A stretch of DNA of 38,896 nt from Oscillospiraceae bacterium (lineage in GTDB: Bacteria > Bacillota > Clostridia > Christensenellales > Aristaeellaceae), in NCBI GenBank assembly GCA_031280145.1, contig JAITHB010000117.1:1-38896 (forward strand), written 5' to 3'. The position numbers were made by a program, and so were the translations under genes. Of this stretch, positions 33,183-38,896 are shown one piece after another. Numbering within the stretch: position 1 is the first letter of the stretch; each line of letters starts with the position of its first letter. The notes under the pieces were generated by a model. The model was not told where the DNA came from. It did not search any database and worked only from the letters and a program-made list of their open reading frames with translations.

Positions 33183-33868
33183 CAAACTATTTGGATGAGC
33201 TGGGCGGCGCACGAATAAATGTATACCTCGGCGGATACGGCTGCGGCAAGACGGAGCTTGCGCTTGACGCGGCGCTGCGGATTGCCGCGCCGGGACGTAA
33301 GGTTGCGCTGATAGACGTGGACATCGTGAACCCGTACTTCCGTTCGAGCGATAAACGAGTGTGGCTTGAGTCGCAAGGAGTGCGCGTTATCGCGCCTGTT
33401 TACGCGATGACGAGCGTCGACACACCGGTGCTGTCGCCCGCAATCAAGTCCGTGTTCGACGGGCGGGACGAGCGCGCCGTGTTCGACGTAGGCGGCGACA
33501 CGGCGGGCAGCGCGGTGATCGGCGGCTATGCGGAACGCATCCGCGAAAGCGAGTCGCGCGTGTGGTATGTAATCAACACGAGCCGTCCGCTTTCTGAAAC
33601 CGCGGAAGACAACGTCGCGCGCATAAATGAGATTTGCCTGCGCTCGCGCCTGCGGCCCGACGGACTCATCCACAACACAAACCTGCAACACGAGACCGCG
33701 CCGGAGGTTCTGATTGATTCATTCCGAATAATCGAACAAATCAGCGAACGGACGGGCATACCCGTCGCCGCCGTAACGGGCGAGGCGCGGCTGGCCGCGC
33801 GGCTGCCGAACGGTATGCGTGGGTTATTTGTCGGGATTGGCAGGAGGACTGTGTATTCGTTTATATAA
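33179..33868 (+). CDS. MinD/ParA-like (SIMIBI) P-loop ATPase
   Basis: A 229-residue cytoplasmic ATPase. The Walker A loop is GGYGCGKTE (residues 18-26), and KVALIDVDIVNPYFRSS just after it is typical of MinD/CobQ-related proteins, as is the Walker B-like AVFDVGGDTAGS. VIHNTNLQ-type residues (LIHNTNLQHETAPEVLIDS) fit the base-recognition Asn. It lacks the deviant KGGxGKT form of true MinD/ParA. Related ATPases are widespread in Clostridia, often near 2-oxoacid oxidoreductase genes, with no settled role. Translation is coupled to the upstream membrane protein through ATGA. It converges with the MNT gene on the other strand, overlapping it by 8 nt. Confidence 0.8.
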   Translation: MTNYLDELGGARINVYLGGYGCGKTELALDAALRIAAPGRKVALIDVDIVNPYFRSSDKRVWLESQGVRVIAPVYAMTSVDTPVLSPAIKSVFDGRDERAVFDVGGDTAGSAVIGGYAERIRESESRVWYVINTSRPLSETAEDNVARINEICLRSRLRPDGLIHNTNLQHETAPEVLIDSFRIIEQISERTGIPVAAVTGEARLAARLPNGMRGLFVGIGRRTVYSFI

Positions 33869-34166
33869 TAATCGGTTGTCCCGTTCGCAGAACTTCGCTG
33901 ATAAACCCGCCGCTTTCCTTTGCGCGGTCAAGCAGAATCGGTTCGATGTATGTGCTTATTTTCCAGGTAAGCCCCGCCAAACGCGTGTATGTTTGAAACC
34001 AGTCCTGTTCCAGCCCATTAAAAATTACGGCGATGTCAATATCGCTGTCCGCCCTCGCGTTGCCTTTTGCATACGAACCGTACAGCACGACTTGCTCCGG
34101 ATTCATTTCTTTATAAACCGCGCGGGCGTACTCACGCGCATACGCTAAAGCCTGCTCTTTATCCAT
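33861..34166 (-). CDS. MNT-domain nucleotidyltransferase of a HEPN/MNT pair
   Basis: A 101-residue nucleotidyltransferase. The active-site pattern is VVLYGSYAKGNARADSDIDI (GS followed by two acidic residues). The preferred start is the ATG at 34166, ten bases after GGAGG; the frame continues 13 codons upstream within the HEPN gene. It overlaps the HEPN gene by 22 nt and follows it. In such modules the MNT protein acts as antitoxin, modifying the HEPN partner. Order here (HEPN first) is the reverse of that inferred for the module at 31554. Confidence 0.87.
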   Translation of the reverse strand: MDKEQALAYAREYARAVYKEMNPEQVVLYGSYAKGNARADSDIDIAVIFNGLEQDWFQTYTRLAGLTWKISTYIEPILLDRAKESGGFISEVLRTGQPIII

Positions 34167-34531
34167 TTGAACAAATCCTCCGTTCTGGTAAGAAGCGATT
34201 TGCAATAAGACTCTTTCATCATATGAGACATCTCGAACTGCTCAGAAGGATAACGCGCTTCAAGATTCATCGGAAACAGCTCGTTTAGAATAGCTAGTTG
34301 CTCATCTGACAGTGAACCTTCAAGCCCGCCCAACTCTGCTAACCGCATAAGATTATGTATTCGCGGCGGGATTTCTCCCGGTTTGGCAATCAATGCTTTT
34401 AGGCTTTTCTCAATTACCAAGTGGCAGAAAAACGCCATATGCAAATATCGACCGCCCTTGAAAAGCCAATTGGCAGTTTGGATATCGTCTTCAGCAGAAA
34501 CGATCCAATATGATGGATTATCAGCGTTCAA
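34145..34531 (-). CDS. HEPN-domain protein (probable toxin of a HEPN/MNT pair)
   Basis: A 128-residue helical protein of the HEPN group. The first helices read YWIVSAEDDIQTANWLFKGG, then FFCHLVIEKSLKALIAKPGE and PPRIHNLMRLAELGGL, matching the common HEPN pattern of a clustered E-K-lKAL helix followed by HNL. It starts at TTG (34531), with GGGAG about ten bases upstream and an extended -10 promoter 33 nt before. HEPN proteins of this class are often ribonucleases. A classical RxxxxH site is not obvious, so its activity is uncertain. Confidence 0.85.
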   Translation of the reverse strand: MNADNPSYWIVSAEDDIQTANWLFKGGRYLHMAFFCHLVIEKSLKALIAKPGEIPPRIHNLMRLAELGGLEGSLSDEQLAILNELFPMNLEARYPSEQFEMSHMMKESYCKSLLTRTEDLFKWIKSRL

Positions 34532-34593: not shown

Positions 34594-35565
34594 CTACCTC
34601 TCCCCCTTATCATAAGGCACGCCGCTCGCCCGCGGCGCATGGCTGCTGCGGCTTGAGAACGCCAGCACGATAAGCGTCATTATGTAGGGTATCATCTTGT
34701 AGATGTCGCTCGGGATGGGCAGGCTCTTCAGGAACGGGATGCCCGAATACGCAGACGCGAGCGTCTTCATTATGCTGAAGAAGAGCGCGGCGACGAATAT
34801 GCGCATCGGCTTCCACTGCCCGAATATCAGTACCGCGACCGCGAGAAAGCCGTAGCCCGACACGGTGGCGTTGAAATCCGTCGAGGTGGGTATCACGAAC
34901 ACCAATCCGCCAAGCCCCGCGAGCGCGCCTGAGATGAGTACGCCCGCGTAGCGAATCTTGTACACGTTTACGCCGACGGAGTCCGCCGCCTGCGGGTGTT
35001 CGCCGCAAGCGCGAAGGCGCAAGCCGAACCTTGTTTTGTAGAGGACGACCCACGCGGCGGCGAGTATGGCGAAGCCGATGAACGTCGTTATATATGTGTT
35101 CTGGAACAGGAGCGGTCCGATTACGGGAATATCCGCGAGATACGGCACGGCGCGGATGCGGAACGTATTGTTGAACTGCACCTGCTGCACGTGGTTGCTC
35201 TGCGCCATTCTGGCGATGTAGATGGCCAGCGCGGGCGCCGCCATGTTGAGCGCGGTTCCCGATATGGTTTGGTCGGAACGAAGGCGGATGGACGCGTAGG
35301 CGTGAGGCAGCGAGAACAGCATTCCCGCGGCGATTGAGATGAGTATCGCAAGCAGAAGCAAGCCCTGCCCGCTCATCACGTTCTGGAGCGTGTTAATGAA
35401 GAAGATTGCGCAGAACGCGCCGATAACCATTATGCCCTCCAGCGCGATGTTCACGACGCCGCTGCGCTCGGAGAACATTCCGCCGAGCGCGACAATAAGA
35501 AGCGGCACCGCGAATATCCACATCTGCTGAATCAAGAACGAGAACGTTTGCATGAAGGAATTCAT
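34594..35565 (-). CDS. nupQ: Nucleoside ABC transporter permease (NupQ/YufQ type)
   Basis: A 323-residue membrane protein of the branched BPD_transp_2 family with eight or more helices. The signature GGMFSERSGVVNIALEGIMV (residues about 28-47) is typical of the NupQ/BmpA-associated permeases that import guanosine and other nucleosides, and FGLRLRACGEHPQAADSVGV is the conserved cytoplasmic loop. AAGGAG precedes the ATG. It is the last gene of nupO-nupP-nupQ but is separated from nupP by 251 nt occupied by a repeat element. The lipoprotein partner (NupN/BmpA) is not in the window. Confidence 0.9.
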   Translation of the reverse strand: MNSFMQTFSFLIQQMWIFAVPLLIVALGGMFSERSGVVNIALEGIMVIGAFCAIFFINTLQNVMSGQGLLLLAILISIAAGMLFSLPHAYASIRLRSDQTISGTALNMAAPALAIYIARMAQSNHVQQVQFNNTFRIRAVPYLADIPVIGPLLFQNTYITTFIGFAILAAAWVVLYKTRFGLRLRACGEHPQAADSVGVNVYKIRYAGVLISGALAGLGGLVFVIPTSTDFNATVSGYGFLAVAVLIFGQWKPMRIFVAALFFSIMKTLASAYSGIPFLKSLPIPSDIYKMIPYIMTLIVLAFSSRSSHAPRASGVPYDKGER

Positions 35566-35619
35566 TGTAATGTCTCCTTAGTCTCAAAGATTAACGGCGG
35601 GCGACCTCCGATCGCCATA

Positions 35620-35797
35620 GGCTGTCGACAAAAGCCCTTTGCGTTGTAAACCGCGGGCGAGCCGGGGGCTCGCCCCTACATGGGGTAATCTATCGGTATA
35701 CAGGAATGCAATATGCTGTAGGGGCGAGCCCCCGGCTCGCCCGCGGTTATCAATACATCGTCCGCCATCATACAAAACAATCGTTTGCCGACAGTCC
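35620..35797. repeat. Nested-palindrome repeat element, copy C, inside the nup operon
   Basis: Ends are GGCTGTCGACAAAA (35620-35633) and TTTGCCGACAGTCC (35784-35797). Its core is a perfect 30-bp inverted repeat, 35651-35680 and 35717-35746, around a 36-nt spacer with the linker TATCGGTATACAGGAATGCA. Each arm is itself a palindrome of the GGGCGAGCC/GGCTCGCCC type (35655-35675 and 35722-35742). It lies between nupP and nupQ. Weak GGGCGA-type flanks occur on both sides (35599-35615 and 35798-35818). Confidence 0.78.
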
Positions 35798-35816
35798 GGG
35801 CGACCTCCGACAGCCC

Positions 35817-36923
35817 CTACTTTTTTGCCGAAACCAATCCCGCCATAACCTGCTTCATCATCAGCGCGAACGCGGAGAAGTAGATTATCACGGCGATAAT
35901 TATGTCGATGATTTCCGACATGTAGTTGAGCCGTTGCAGATAGTACCCGCCCTGCGTTATATACGCCACGAACAGCCCCGAGAAGATTATCCCTATCGGG
36001 TTTGACAGACCGAGCAGCGCGACGGGGATTCCGTTGAACCCCTGCGCGGACAGCACCTCGATTACGTGGATGTGCAGACCGCTTGCGGGGGCGAGATACA
36101 TAAGCGCGCCCGCGCCCGCGGCAAGAGCGCCCGCGACTGTCATAGACAGCATTATCCCGCGCTTTTCCTTTATGCCCGCGTAGCGGCTCGCGTCCTTGTT
36201 GAAGCCGCAGGCACGAAGCTCGTAGCCGAGCACCGTTTTGTTCAGCAGAACATATATGACTATTGCGAGAATGACTGCGATGAGTATTCCGCCGTTCACG
36301 CTTGAGATATCCATATATCTTCCCTTGAGGTTGTAGAACACCTTGTCCAAGCCGAGCTTGGGAATCGCCGCCTGCCCGATGTTCACGGTCTGGTTCTTCA
36401 GTTGGTCGTAGGTGTTCGTGTTCTTTATCGTGAAGTTGACGAGATACATCCCTATATAGTTGCACATTATGCACGCGATAACCTCGTGCACGTTGAACAG
36501 CGCCTTGAACAGCCCCGGGATCGCGCCCCACACCGCGCCCGCCAGCATTGCCGCGATAAAGCAGACCACCCACAGAATCGGCTGCGGAACGAACGCGCAG
36601 TTGACGGCGGTCCATATTCCGACGAACGCGCCGACGATAAGCTGACCCGGCGCGCCGATGTTGAACAAGCCCGTCTTGAACGCGAACCCGACGGACAGAC
36701 CCGTCATGATAAGCGGCGTGGCGTAATAAAGAACGTTGCCGATTCCCTTGAAGCCGTCGGAGAATCCGCCCTTCATGATTGTCCATATGCCCGCGAACGC
36801 CTGCGACGGGTTGCTGACAAGCAGGATGAAGAACCCGAACAGCAGACCCACCGCTATCGCGGCGAGGGACGACATTACGCTGGCGAACGCGGGAGCGGAC
36901 AGTATGCGCGTTATTTTCTTCAT
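35817..36923 (-). CDS. nupP: Nucleoside ABC transporter permease (NupP/YufP type)
   Basis: A 368-residue permease of the BPD_transp_2 family. The first helix (SSLAAIAVGLLFGFFILLVS) is followed by the diagnostic FNIGAPGQLIVGAFVGIW near residue 90 and the loop YELRACGFNKDASRYAGI near 230. It pairs with NupQ to form the channel of a nucleoside importer. AGGAG lies six bases before the ATG. Between it and nupO is a 20-bp AT-rich inverted repeat that also contains the nupO stop codon. Substrate class is inferred from the family. Confidence 0.9.
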   Translation of the reverse strand: MKKITRILSAPAFASVMSSLAAIAVGLLFGFFILLVSNPSQAFAGIWTIMKGGFSDGFKGIGNVLYYATPLIMTGLSVGFAFKTGLFNIGAPGQLIVGAFVGIWTAVNCAFVPQPILWVVCFIAAMLAGAVWGAIPGLFKALFNVHEVIACIMCNYIGMYLVNFTIKNTNTYDQLKNQTVNIGQAAIPKLGLDKVFYNLKGRYMDISSVNGGILIAVILAIVIYVLLNKTVLGYELRACGFNKDASRYAGIKEKRGIMLSMTVAGALAAGAGALMYLAPASGLHIHVIEVLSAQGFNGIPVALLGLSNPIGIIFSGLFVAYITQGGYYLQRLNYMSEIIDIIIAVIIYFSAFALMMKQVMAGLVSAKK

Positions 36924-36940
36924 AGAAACTCCTATAAATA

Positions 36941-37020
36941 AAAAATTAACAATGAAAAATGAAAAATTAATGGTTATAAGCTTTAGATTACAGACACTTA
37001 ATTTTTCATTGTTAATTTTT
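36941..37020. repeat. 20-bp perfect AT-rich inverted repeat at the nupO-nupP junction
   Basis: The arms AAAAATTAACAATGAAAAAT (36941-36960) and its exact reverse complement (37001-37020) flank 40 nt. The nupO stop lies at its inner edge, and the last residues of NupO are read from the arm. The nupP ribosome site follows 10 nt beyond, so the stem could affect its translation. Confidence 0.7.
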
Positions 37021-38548
37021 CATTGTTCATTCTCTTGCTCCCCGCCATATACAGCCCCAGTTCCTGCGCGGTCGCGTCCTTCGCCTGCAAATCCGCCACG
37101 ATTTCACCCTCGTACATCACAAGGATTCTGTCGGACAGGTTCAGCACCTCGTCCAGTTCGAGCGAAACCAGCAGGACCGCTCGACCCGCGTCGCGCGCGT
37201 CCAATATGCGGTGGTGTATGTATTCTATCGCGCCGACGTCCAATCCGCGCGTCGGCTGAACCGCAATAAGAACGCTCGGCTCTTCGCCCATCTCGCGCGC
37301 GATTATCGCCTTTTGCTGGTTGCCGCCCGACAGGCTTCTCGCAATCGTTCTGCCGCCCTGTCCGCTGCGCACGTCGAAGTCGCGGCAAAGCCTGTCCGCG
37401 TGTCCGCGGAACACCGTGCGCGAGAGGAAGCCGCGCCGCTGGAACGGATGCCTCCAATAACTCTTGAGGGCCATGTTGTCTTCAAGCGTGTAATCCAAAA
37501 CAAGACCGTGCTTGTGCCTGTCCTCGGGAATGTGCGACAGACCGAGCGCGTTGCGCGCCCGAACGTTCGCGCGGCTTATATCCTTGCCGTTCATCGTGAC
37601 CGCGCCGTGTTCAAGCGGAAGAAGACCCGTCAGCGCGTAGACCAATTCCGTCTGTCCGTTGCCGTCTATTCCCGCGACGCAGACTATCTCGCCGCGGCGC
37701 ACGTCGAAGCTTACGTCCTTCACCTTGGGCTTGTGCCCGCGCTTCGTTCCCGCGGTCAAGCCGCGCACGGAGAGCGCGCTTTCCCGGGAAGGCTTCGCCG
37801 CGTTCTTGTCGAGGGTAAACTCCACCTTGCGCCCGACCATCATCTCGCTCATCTGTTCCATGGAAGTTTCCGCCACGTTCACCGTGCCGATATACTTTCC
37901 CTTGCGCAGAACCGTGCAGCGGTCCGCGACCTGCTTTATTTCAGCCAGCTTGTGAGTGATGAAGAGGATGGACTTGCCTTCCGCCGTGAGGTTCTTCATG
38001 ATGTGCATGAGTTCCATTATCTCTTGCGGGGTGAGAACCGCCGTGGGTTCGTCGAAGATGAGTATCTCGTTCTCGCGGTAGAGCATCTTCAGAATCTCGA
38101 CGCGCTGCTGCATTCCGACAGTTATATCGGAGATGAGCTTGTCGGGGTCTACGGCGAGACCGTACGCTTCCGACTGCCGAACAATCTTCTTTCTCGCGTC
38201 GTCCATCGACAGCAGACCGCGCTTCGTCGTTTCGACGCCAAGACAGATGTTCTCCAGCACCGTGAAGTTGTGCACCAGCTTGAAGTGCTGATGGACCATG
38301 CCTATGCCAAGCTCGTTCGCGTCGCCGGGGTTGTTAATCTTAACAGGATTGCCGTTCTTCTTGATCGTGCCGCCGTCCGGCTGATACAGACCGAACAGCA
38401 CGCTCATCAGCGTGGACTTGCCCGCGCCGTTCTCGCCGAGCAGCGCGTGAATTTCGCCGCGGCGCAGCGTCAGGCTTACATTGTCGTTCGCTCGTATGCC
38501 CGGGAAGTCCTTGGTTATGCCCTCAAGCTCGATTACATAATCTTCCAT
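36998..38548 (-). CDS. nupO: Nucleoside ABC transporter ATPase, tandem domains (NupO/YufO type)
   Basis: A 516-residue ATPase with two ABC domains. Domain one has Walker [10 protein letters not shown] (38-46), Q-loop region VHQHFKL, signature-like [14 protein letters not shown] and Walker [16 protein letters not shown]. Domain two has the degenerate Walker [10 protein letters not shown], signature [15 protein letters not shown] and [14 protein letters not shown], as in other importers of the sugar/nucleoside (RbsA-like) class. GGAGGT precedes the ATG. The C-terminal tail ([13 protein letters not shown]) is encoded by an AT-rich inverted repeat and is unlikely to be part of the ancestral protein. 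It heads the nupO-nupP-nupQ operon. Confidence 0.94.
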
Positions 38549-38590
38549 ACGACCTCCGCATTGGTCCGGTTTTCCGCAATTTGTATGATA

Positions 38591-38619
38591 AATATAACAT
38601 AATTTGGGGGGAACCGCAA
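38591..38619 (-). promoter_or_regulatory. Promoter of the nup operon
   Basis: On the minus strand TTGCGG (38619-38614) and TATATT (38596-38591) are separated by 17 nt, giving a leader of about 35-40 nt before nupO. No purine riboswitch fits in that short leader. Confidence 0.65.
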
Positions 38620-38675
38620 GTAAATGAATAACGGTTTATTACGATGGATGGATAAAGAAAATTTGCCGCGAGGTA

Positions 38676-38704
38676 TTGATATTTGCGCGTGAATTGCGTA
38701 TAAT
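38676..38704 (+). promoter_or_regulatory. Near-consensus promoter of a small transcription unit
   Basis: TTGATA (38676-38681) and a perfect TATAAT (38699-38704) are separated by exactly 17 nt, reading away from nupO. Confidence 0.8.
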
Positions 38705-38710
38705 AGTGGC

Positions 38711-38790
38711 AGAGGTTGCCTTTCTGGGCGGATATGTTTCCCCCGTGCGAGTTCTGATGAGATCGCCGTAGTGTCAGCTACGGCGGTTTT
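38711..38790 (+). ncRNA. Candidate small RNA of about 80 nt
   Basis: The promoter at 38676 would start a transcript near 38711 that ends at the terminator at 38764-38790. There is no reading frame of note with a ribosome site. The body contains GGGCGGATATGTTTCCCCC, able to form an imperfect hairpin and offering a C-run that could pair with ribosome sites, and GTTCTGATGAG before the terminator. I could not match it to 6S RNA, SRP RNA or a riboswitch class known to me. Confidence 0.5.
38764..38790 (+). terminator. Intrinsic terminator
   Basis: CGCCGTAG (38764-38771) pairs perfectly with CTACGGCG (38778-38785), loop TGTCAG, followed by GTTTTGCG. A classic Rho-independent terminator with a short T-run. 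Confidence 0.8.
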
Positions 38791-38812
38791 GCGTTATCAA
38801 CCATTATTGTAG

Positions 38813-38896
38813 GGGCGATTTCCAATCGCCCGCCCGATGGTCGTACGACCCGTTATTCCGTAGGCGATTGTATGTCATCTGCGGCATAACGGGTCG
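38813..38896. repeat. Nested-palindrome repeat family, copy D (cut by window edge)
   Basis: GGGCGATT (38813-38820) pairs with AATCGCCC (38824-38831). It is followed by GGTCGTACGACC, then CGACCCGTTAT (38847-38857), which is the exact reverse complement of ATAACGGGTCG (38886-38896). The first two parts match the right part of copy B; the element continues beyond the window. Confidence 0.6.

What the first reader, a model, noticed from the sequence alone, without database searches (positions are those of the whole stretch)
38676..38790. Promoter-to-terminator unit for a possible new small RNA
TTGATA-17-TATAAT followed about 60 nt later by an intrinsic terminator gives a transcript of about 80 nt with no protein. 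A C-rich stretch (TTTCCCCC) could target ribosome sites, as seen for C-rich Gram-positive sRNAs. It is divergent from nupO.
Basis: partly seen in the sequence, partly recalled or inferred. Interest (0 to 1): 0.6.

Follow-up and report, generated by a model that had tools for sequence, protein, structure and literature searches.

The report
Toxin-less RNA antitoxin, type I system
The small RNA gene looks real and is best read as the RNA half of a known kind of bacterial toxin-antitoxin pair; five complete pairs lie elsewhere in the same genome, while this copy has no visible toxin gene beside it, so it is a mostly ordinary find with one curious feature.

Summary
Promoter (38676-38704) and strong hairpin (38759-38790) are there, and the body between them is conserved. 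A covariance model finds six such RNA genes in this genome. At the other five places the RNA is convergent with a 28-30 aa single-helix peptide whose stop codon lies just beyond the shared hairpin: the layout of a type I toxin-antitoxin pair. Related toxins occur in 50 of 308 genomes of the family; some relatives match Pfam Hol_Tox (TxpA/BsrG type). In the window the toxin is absent: homology stops at its stop codon (38796), followed by 11 bases and a dispersed repeat in which the contig ends. So this is a solitary antitoxin RNA, or one cut from its toxin by an insertion. The C-rich stretch corresponds to the anti-SD strand of the toxin mRNA's own leader; its pairing with the nearest toxins' ribosome sites is no better than shuffled, so a FsrA-like role is not supported. 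Across 72 pairs antitoxin body and cognate toxin leader are near-copies, pair by pair, as in bsrG/SR4. Expression, toxicity and function are untested. New member of a known kind.

The parts
38676..38704 (+). sigma-70 type promoter TTGATA-17-TATAAT of the antitoxin RNA
   Evidence: hexamers kept in the C9, C67 and C120 copies (-10 6/6 in all three; -35 6/6, 5/6, 5/6)
38708..38791 (+). predicted antitoxin RNA, about 80-85 nt (start inferred from the promoter and from the leader shared by the copies, not measured)
   Evidence: covariance model R1, E=2.9e-22 at this place, one of six full-length copies (this copy is one of the six rows of the model)
38705..38719 (+). 5' leader AGTGGCAGAGGTTGC; its counterparts in the paired loci are also the 5' leader of the toxin mRNA
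38732..38754 (+). conserved block with the C-rich stretch 38737-38744 (TTTCCCCC), counterpart of the toxin leader's own anti-SD strand
38759..38790 (+). terminator hairpin, shared with the convergent toxin gene in the five paired copies
38794..38796 (-). TTA in the position of the toxin's stop codon (TAA); homology to the paired copies ends here
38797..38896 (.). where the toxin ORF would lie: 11 bases without homology, then a dispersed repeat (from about 38808) in which the contig ends; no toxin

Best explanation
[quoted passage not shown] In the intact copies a short single-helix membrane peptide is encoded convergently and both genes end at one hairpin. Most likely mode of action (inferred): the RNA is made constitutively from a strong promoter, pairs with the toxin mRNA through the complementary terminator hairpin, and blocks translation or triggers RNase III decay. 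Its body is a near-copy of the toxin mRNA's own 5' leader, so leader and antitoxin would compete for the same complementary 3' arm of the toxin transcript, as the bsrG leader (helix P1) and SR4 appear to do; this needs the toxin transcript to run past the shared hairpin, which is not shown. The window copy has lost its toxin (deletion, or insertion of a dispersed repeat). It is either a recent relic or still acts in trans on sister toxins, with which it shares identical terminator arms. Shown by sequence: copies, layout, conservation, leader identity. Inferred: transcription, toxicity, mechanism, action in trans.
For: Three more copies in the own genome by blastn (87, 84, 76% identity) and six in all by covariance model (E 6e-25 to 1.4e-15; next full-length match E 0.96). 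Five of the six have a convergent ORF of 28-30 aa with a strong RBS, an invariant E5, a hydrophobic core and a charged tail. Toxin profile: 50 of 308 family genomes at E<=0.01. 81 distinct toxin loci: antitoxin-strand promoter of 13 bits or more in 75 of 81, against 0 of 400 shuffles. From the RNA side: a model of 13 antitoxin RNAs (rows taken from toxin-bearing loci, no toxin letters in it) gave 36 examined hits in two genera, 31 with a convergent toxin. R1 found two tandem copies in G027 that the toxin profile had missed, with a longer M-T-G-Y-E peptide in the expected place. Hol_Tox matches 10 of 23 aligned peptides at E<=1, best 3.6e-12. Leader identity: cognate 10.9 against 8.5 permuted within clusters (0 of 5000); toxin leader against the strand opposite the antitoxin -51.3 against -39.5 (0 of 5000).
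Against: No transcript or toxicity data. The own genome's toxins reach no Pfam or NCBIfam model and the genome has no PF16935 match at E<=1; the link is through relatives. The window RNA pairs with the C9/C67 ribosome sites no better than shuffles, and cognate RBS pairing over the 72 pairs is only moderately better than permuted (16 of 5000 within clusters; median rank 26 of 72). The U-tract is short. The contig ends 100 bases past the homology, so a displaced toxin cannot be excluded; the genome is 93% complete. Permutation tests do not remove all relatedness (one cluster holds 56 of 72 pairs).
Confidence: 0.85

Rival explanations
1. A sub-case of the best explanation: it is a decaying relic. 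After toxin loss the antitoxin gene has no function and is merely not yet eroded.
For: In relatives three RNA hits with E 2e-7 or better lack a toxin (L249, L260, L256). Two of them (G011, G222) lie at the 3' end of a UvrA-like reading frame, and in one of these the leader is already lost. The solitary copy has no cognate target in cis.
Against: In the window promoter, leader, C-rich block and both hairpin arms are as well kept as in the paired copies.
Confidence: 0.45
2. The toxin is still present: a dispersed repeat was inserted between the toxin's stop codon and its body, and the assembly broke there.
For: TTA of the stop codon is kept; the repeat has about 60 matches in the genome and the contig ends inside it.
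Against: No further toxin ORF in the assembly: five matches at E<=10, each with its own RNA.
Confidence: 0.2
3. It is a trans-acting C-rich sRNA (FsrA-like) that blocks GGGGGA-type ribosome sites of many genes.
For: TTTCCCCC at 38737-38744, matched by TCTCCCCC in the C9 and C67 copies.
Against: Five of six copies sit opposite a toxin gene; the stretch is largely paired in the predicted fold; no excess pairing with the closest ribosome sites; no Rfam match.
Confidence: 0.05
4. On the mode of action: the leader copy acts as a direct anti-SD that covers the toxin's ribosome site, as DRa/DRb do in the par locus of pAD1, rather than competing for a 3' arm.
For: Cognate RBS duplexes are somewhat better than permuted; in a 13-sequence subset an anti-SD-like motif (CACCTG) lies in a hairpin, four of whose seven pairs show changes on both sides.
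Against: The effect is modest and absent for several own-genome pairs (C120 rank 69 of 72); it does not explain the pair-specific identity of the 5'-most 11-14 nt.
Confidence: 0.3

Closest known systems
bsrG/SR4 and txpA/RatA of Bacillus subtilis (Hol_Tox, PF16935)
   Same: Convergent antisense RNA overlapping the toxin mRNA's 3' side; toxin with M-x-x-Y-E start and one hydrophobic helix (BsrG read); toxin leader repeated on the antitoxin side: bsrG leader against its own 3'UTR -53.8 against -32.5 (sd 4.5), 0 of 300 shuffles, which fits the main helix P1 named in PMC6562991 (passages).
   Different: Peptides mostly 24-33 aa against 38 (BsrG) and 59 (TxpA, PMC8167048 passage); overlap little more than the shared hairpin against a 100-140 bp stretch (PMC6562991 passage); antitoxin about 85 nt against 180 nt for SR4 (PMC7430163 passage); own-genome peptides are below Pfam thresholds.
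par locus of pAD1, Fst/RNAII (PMC7472228, passages)
   Same: Convergent promoters, shared bidirectional hairpin, short antitoxin RNA, toxin 5' stem-loop over the SD (predicted here), GUG start in three own-genome copies.
   Different: Toxin has Y/F-E near the N-terminus and no PxxxG motif; no proven direct repeats; the leader copy is an inverted repeat in the DNA.
FsrA, a C-rich B. subtilis sRNA (named in PMC7430163, passage)
   Same: A C-rich stretch.
   Different: The gene sits opposite a toxin gene in five of six copies and the stretch is largely paired in the fold.

Membership tests
type I antitoxin RNA | small RNA gene with own promoter and terminator | tested here: met
   (by sequence only; no transcript data)
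type I antitoxin RNA | antisense/convergent to a gene for a small hydrophobic peptide | tested here: met
   met for five of six copies in the genome; not met in cis for the window copy itself
type I antitoxin RNA | RNA prevents toxicity of the peptide | not testable with these tools
   needs expression experiments
Hol_Tox (PF16935) toxin family | match over the Pfam cut-off | tested here: not met
   three own-genome peptides scanned: none at E<=10; own genome none at E<=1. Over the cut-off only in three loci of G033; 10 of 23 aligned members match at E<=1
Hol_Tox (PF16935) toxin family | M-x-x-[YF]-E start, hydrophobic core, charged tail (definition recalled) | tested here: met
Fst/RNAII (par) | convergent promoters and shared bidirectional terminator | tested here: met
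   four or more T in nine after the hairpin: antitoxin side 61 of 72, toxin side 53 of 72
Fst/RNAII (par) | PxxxG/C motif in the toxin | tested here: not met
   no proline in the five own-genome peptides
Fst/RNAII (par) | direct repeats that pair antitoxin with SD and start codon | tested here: inconclusive
   modest cognate excess over 72 pairs, none for the window copy
Rfam families | match to a curated RNA family | tested here: not met
   none in the window at gathering score, none at E<=10 for 38600-38896

The most novel reading that the evidence does not exclude
In this lineage the antitoxin is a portable copy of the toxin mRNA's own leader, and the toxin-less copy in the window is kept as a free-standing antidote that protects in trans against sister toxins (an anti-addiction RNA), letting toxin-bearing cassettes come and go.
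Probability: 0.15. Interest if true: 0.6.

Novelty: new member of a known kind. Interest (0 to 1): 0.33.

Why it matters
It turns an anonymous intergenic RNA into a member of a set of type I toxin-antitoxin pairs that is common in one clostridial family. The pair-specific identity of toxin leader and antitoxin body gives a simple sequence signature for finding such pairs without relying on the tiny peptide, and solitary antitoxins make it testable whether an RNA antidote alone is kept by selection.

Tried and rejected
Rejected: a coding reading (31-codon TTG ORF that starts in the promoter); a known Rfam RNA; plasmid-borne relatives of the C9 toxin (none). The idea that the rest of the antitoxin pairs with the toxin's 5'-most leader had no cognate signal (-11.00 against -10.98 permuted). 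No partner of the leader inside the toxin mRNA was found; cognate values were weaker than permuted for CDS and 3' region (the UTR value of that call is spoiled by empty strings and is not used).

R1 hits in the 100 family genomes: several coincide with toxin loci (G033:C29, G033:C17, G060:C50, G226:C331). Of nine fetched loci outside the own genome that were read (L119, L120, L122-L128) only L119 shows a toxin; the L120 stretch shows only a hairpin. The remaining R1 hits were not read; most are probably chance hairpins.

Counts: 81 toxin loci; 7 dropped for weak or missing promoter calls, 2 more for an odd body length, leaving 72. In some searches, 36 of 37 sense-strand RNA hits were examined (L264 left out; it is locus L091, which has a toxin); opposite-strand hits of the palindromic hairpin were left out. 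One search prints 31 of 45 because nine R1 loci were run with them; all nine were negative there, L119 included, whose peptide the profile misses. One search looked at one strand only and was replaced.

Not achieved: naming the organism. An exact pattern gave 0 places and the ABC ATPase gave relatives at 61-70% identity only, so it is left as an unnamed clostridial genome.

Full report
Observation. The promoter TTGATA-17-TATAAT (38676-38704) and the hairpin 38759-38790 are present. An 11-of-12 promoter match is expected 0.0075 times per shuffle of 38558-38896. The RNA 38711-38796 folds better than 200 shuffles (z -3.95). The U-tract is short and the simple terminator scan did not list the hairpin. 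No Rfam family matches.

Copies. A 297-base query finds three further copies in the own genome (C9, C67, C120; 87, 84, 76% identity), each match ending at query base 197 = window 38796. The same DNA is in none of the 59 other genomes searched. Reading the copies shows, convergent with each, an ORF of 29-30 codons (VTDYELIMIMFTAIGLFIVFFKLGKDRKD in C9 and C67) preceded by AGGAGGGATTGCTT or AAAGGGGGATTGATT, its stop codon lying a few bases beyond the shared hairpin. A protein search adds C177 and C141. A covariance model of the six RNAs (R1) finds these six full-length copies (E 6e-25 to 1.4e-15), which it must, being built from them; the point is that there is no seventh (next full-length match E 0.96). 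So five copies are paired and the window copy is not.

Conservation of the window copy. Against C9: -35 6/6, -10 6/6, spacer 16/17, leader 15/18, C-rich block 21/23, 5' stem arm 11/11, loop 4/8, 3' arm with tail 19/19, upstream region 23/36.

The missing toxin. In the window the homology stops at the stop codon TTA (38794-38796). Bases 38797-38807 have no counterpart, and from about 38808 a dispersed repeat follows, in which the contig ends. All five toxin matches of the genome at E<=10 have their own RNA. Deletion, insertion or a gap of the assembly cannot be told apart.

The family. The 13-row toxin profile A2 matches 50 of 308 genomes of the family, 14 of 50 genera, at E<=0.01. Own-genome peptides match no Pfam or NCBIfam model, but 10 of 23 aligned relatives match Hol_Tox at E<=1, best 3.6e-12 (this set includes one peptide of G033 and one of a Brevibacillus phage), and three loci of G033 exceed the Hol_Tox cut-off. 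From the fetched loci 81 distinct toxin genes were taken; a convergent promoter of 13 bits or more lies on the antitoxin strand in 75 of 81, against 0 of 400 shuffled stretches, with the -10 box a median 99.5 bases from the toxin's stop codon. After the hairpin there are four or more T in nine on the antitoxin side in 61 of 72 and on the toxin side in 53 of 72.

Control from the RNA side. Model R2, built from 13 antitoxin RNAs of other genera, was run on two genera (29 and 11 genomes). Of 36 examined hits 31 have a convergent toxin. The five without are L231, L249, L250, L256 and L260. L249 and L260 are strong RNA matches; L260 and L256 lie at the 3' end of a UvrA-like frame (recognised by eye from its peptide, not by a search), and L256 has lost the leader. 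Solitary copies therefore occur elsewhere, and at least one looks like a relic. R1 also found two tandem RNA copies in G027 that the toxin profile had missed; a 38-40 aa M-T-G-Y-E peptide lies in the expected place.

Toxin leader and antitoxin body. In the paired loci the toxin mRNA and the antitoxin RNA begin with the same stretch, mostly 11-14 nt, and this differs from pair to pair (GGCAGAGAGTAC, GTAGTCAAGAGG, GCAGGAAAGTATC and others). Best ungapped identity score over 72 pairs: cognate 10.9, permuted within clusters 8.5, 0 of 5000; with one representative of each of 11 clusters 10.2 against 7.2, 0 of 10000. Seen as complementarity of the toxin leader to the strand opposite the antitoxin: -51.3 against -39.5 kcal/mol, 0 of 5000, median rank 2.5 of 72, cognate best in 26 of 72. 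One cluster holds 56 of the 72 pairs, so relatedness is not fully removed. A few pairs lack the signal (for example L055, rank 66). Hol_Tox loci of G033 show comparable shared blocks with other sequences (two of three scored from strings picked by eye), and Brevibacillus phage loci L105 and L106 reach scores met by 6 and 3 of 200 shuffles. In bsrG of phage SPBc2 the leader pairs with the mRNA's own 3'UTR at -53.8 against -32.5 (sd 4.5), 0 of 300. [quoted passage not shown] I infer that the computed pairing is P1 and that the antitoxin resembles the leader because both pair with the same 3' arm. For the short-overlap loci here this requires toxin transcripts that pass the shared hairpin; that is not shown.

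The C-rich stretch. TTTCCCCC corresponds to the leader's anti-SD strand (C9 toxin leader GTTCCTCC, which pairs with its own SD in the predicted fold). Cognate antitoxin:RBS duplexes are better than permuted by a modest margin (-16.7 against -16.0 within clusters, 16 of 5000; against -15.5 over all). For the window RNA against C9 and C67 the value is -15.9 against -15.5 for shuffles (130 of 300), against C120 56 of 300, C177 118 of 300 and C141 18 of 300, unremarkable among these tests. In the window RNA's own fold the stretch is largely paired.

What is known. The layout matches Fst/RNAII (convergent promoters, bidirectional terminator; PMC7472228 passages; PMC8167048 passages) and the peptide type matches TxpA/BsrG. 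A review of clostridial type I systems (PMC6563280, passages) reports that an in silico search found few homologues of known type I toxins there. I searched for Hol-Tox and holin-like toxin with antitoxin, T1TAdb, orphan antitoxin and bsrG/SR4 with long-distance. In these listings I saw no paper on this family's pairs or on solitary type I antitoxin RNAs, but only open-licence papers are held and I read passages of seven papers, none in full.

Verdict. A small-RNA gene that looks real, best explained as a toxin-less type I antitoxin RNA: a new member of a known kind, with the leader-copy signature and the solitary state as the points worth a test.

Noticed in passing
window 33861-34531 (-): MntA-like nucleotidyltransferase (NCBIfam MntA_antitoxin 46.7 bits, below its cut-off of 60; Pfam Polbeta) next to a HEPN-domain protein (PF05168): a probable type VII toxin-antitoxin pair.
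   Followed up: partly
window 38808-38896 and about 60 other places in G000: Dispersed repeat (TGTAGGGGCGATTTCCAATCGCCCGC...), often in inverted pairs; this contig ends in it.
   Followed up: partly
L260 and L256 (G011:C99, G222:C6): Antitoxin RNA without toxin at the 3' end of a UvrA-like frame in two species; leader kept in one, lost in the other.
   Followed up: partly
L017 (G024:C1:62226-62997): Three tandem toxin-antitoxin units with a period of 344 bases and identical peptides.
   Followed up: no
window 34594-38548 (-): ABC importer of the sugar/nucleoside type: one double ATPase and two BPD_transp_2 permeases; 'nupO' not confirmed by curated models.
   Followed up: no
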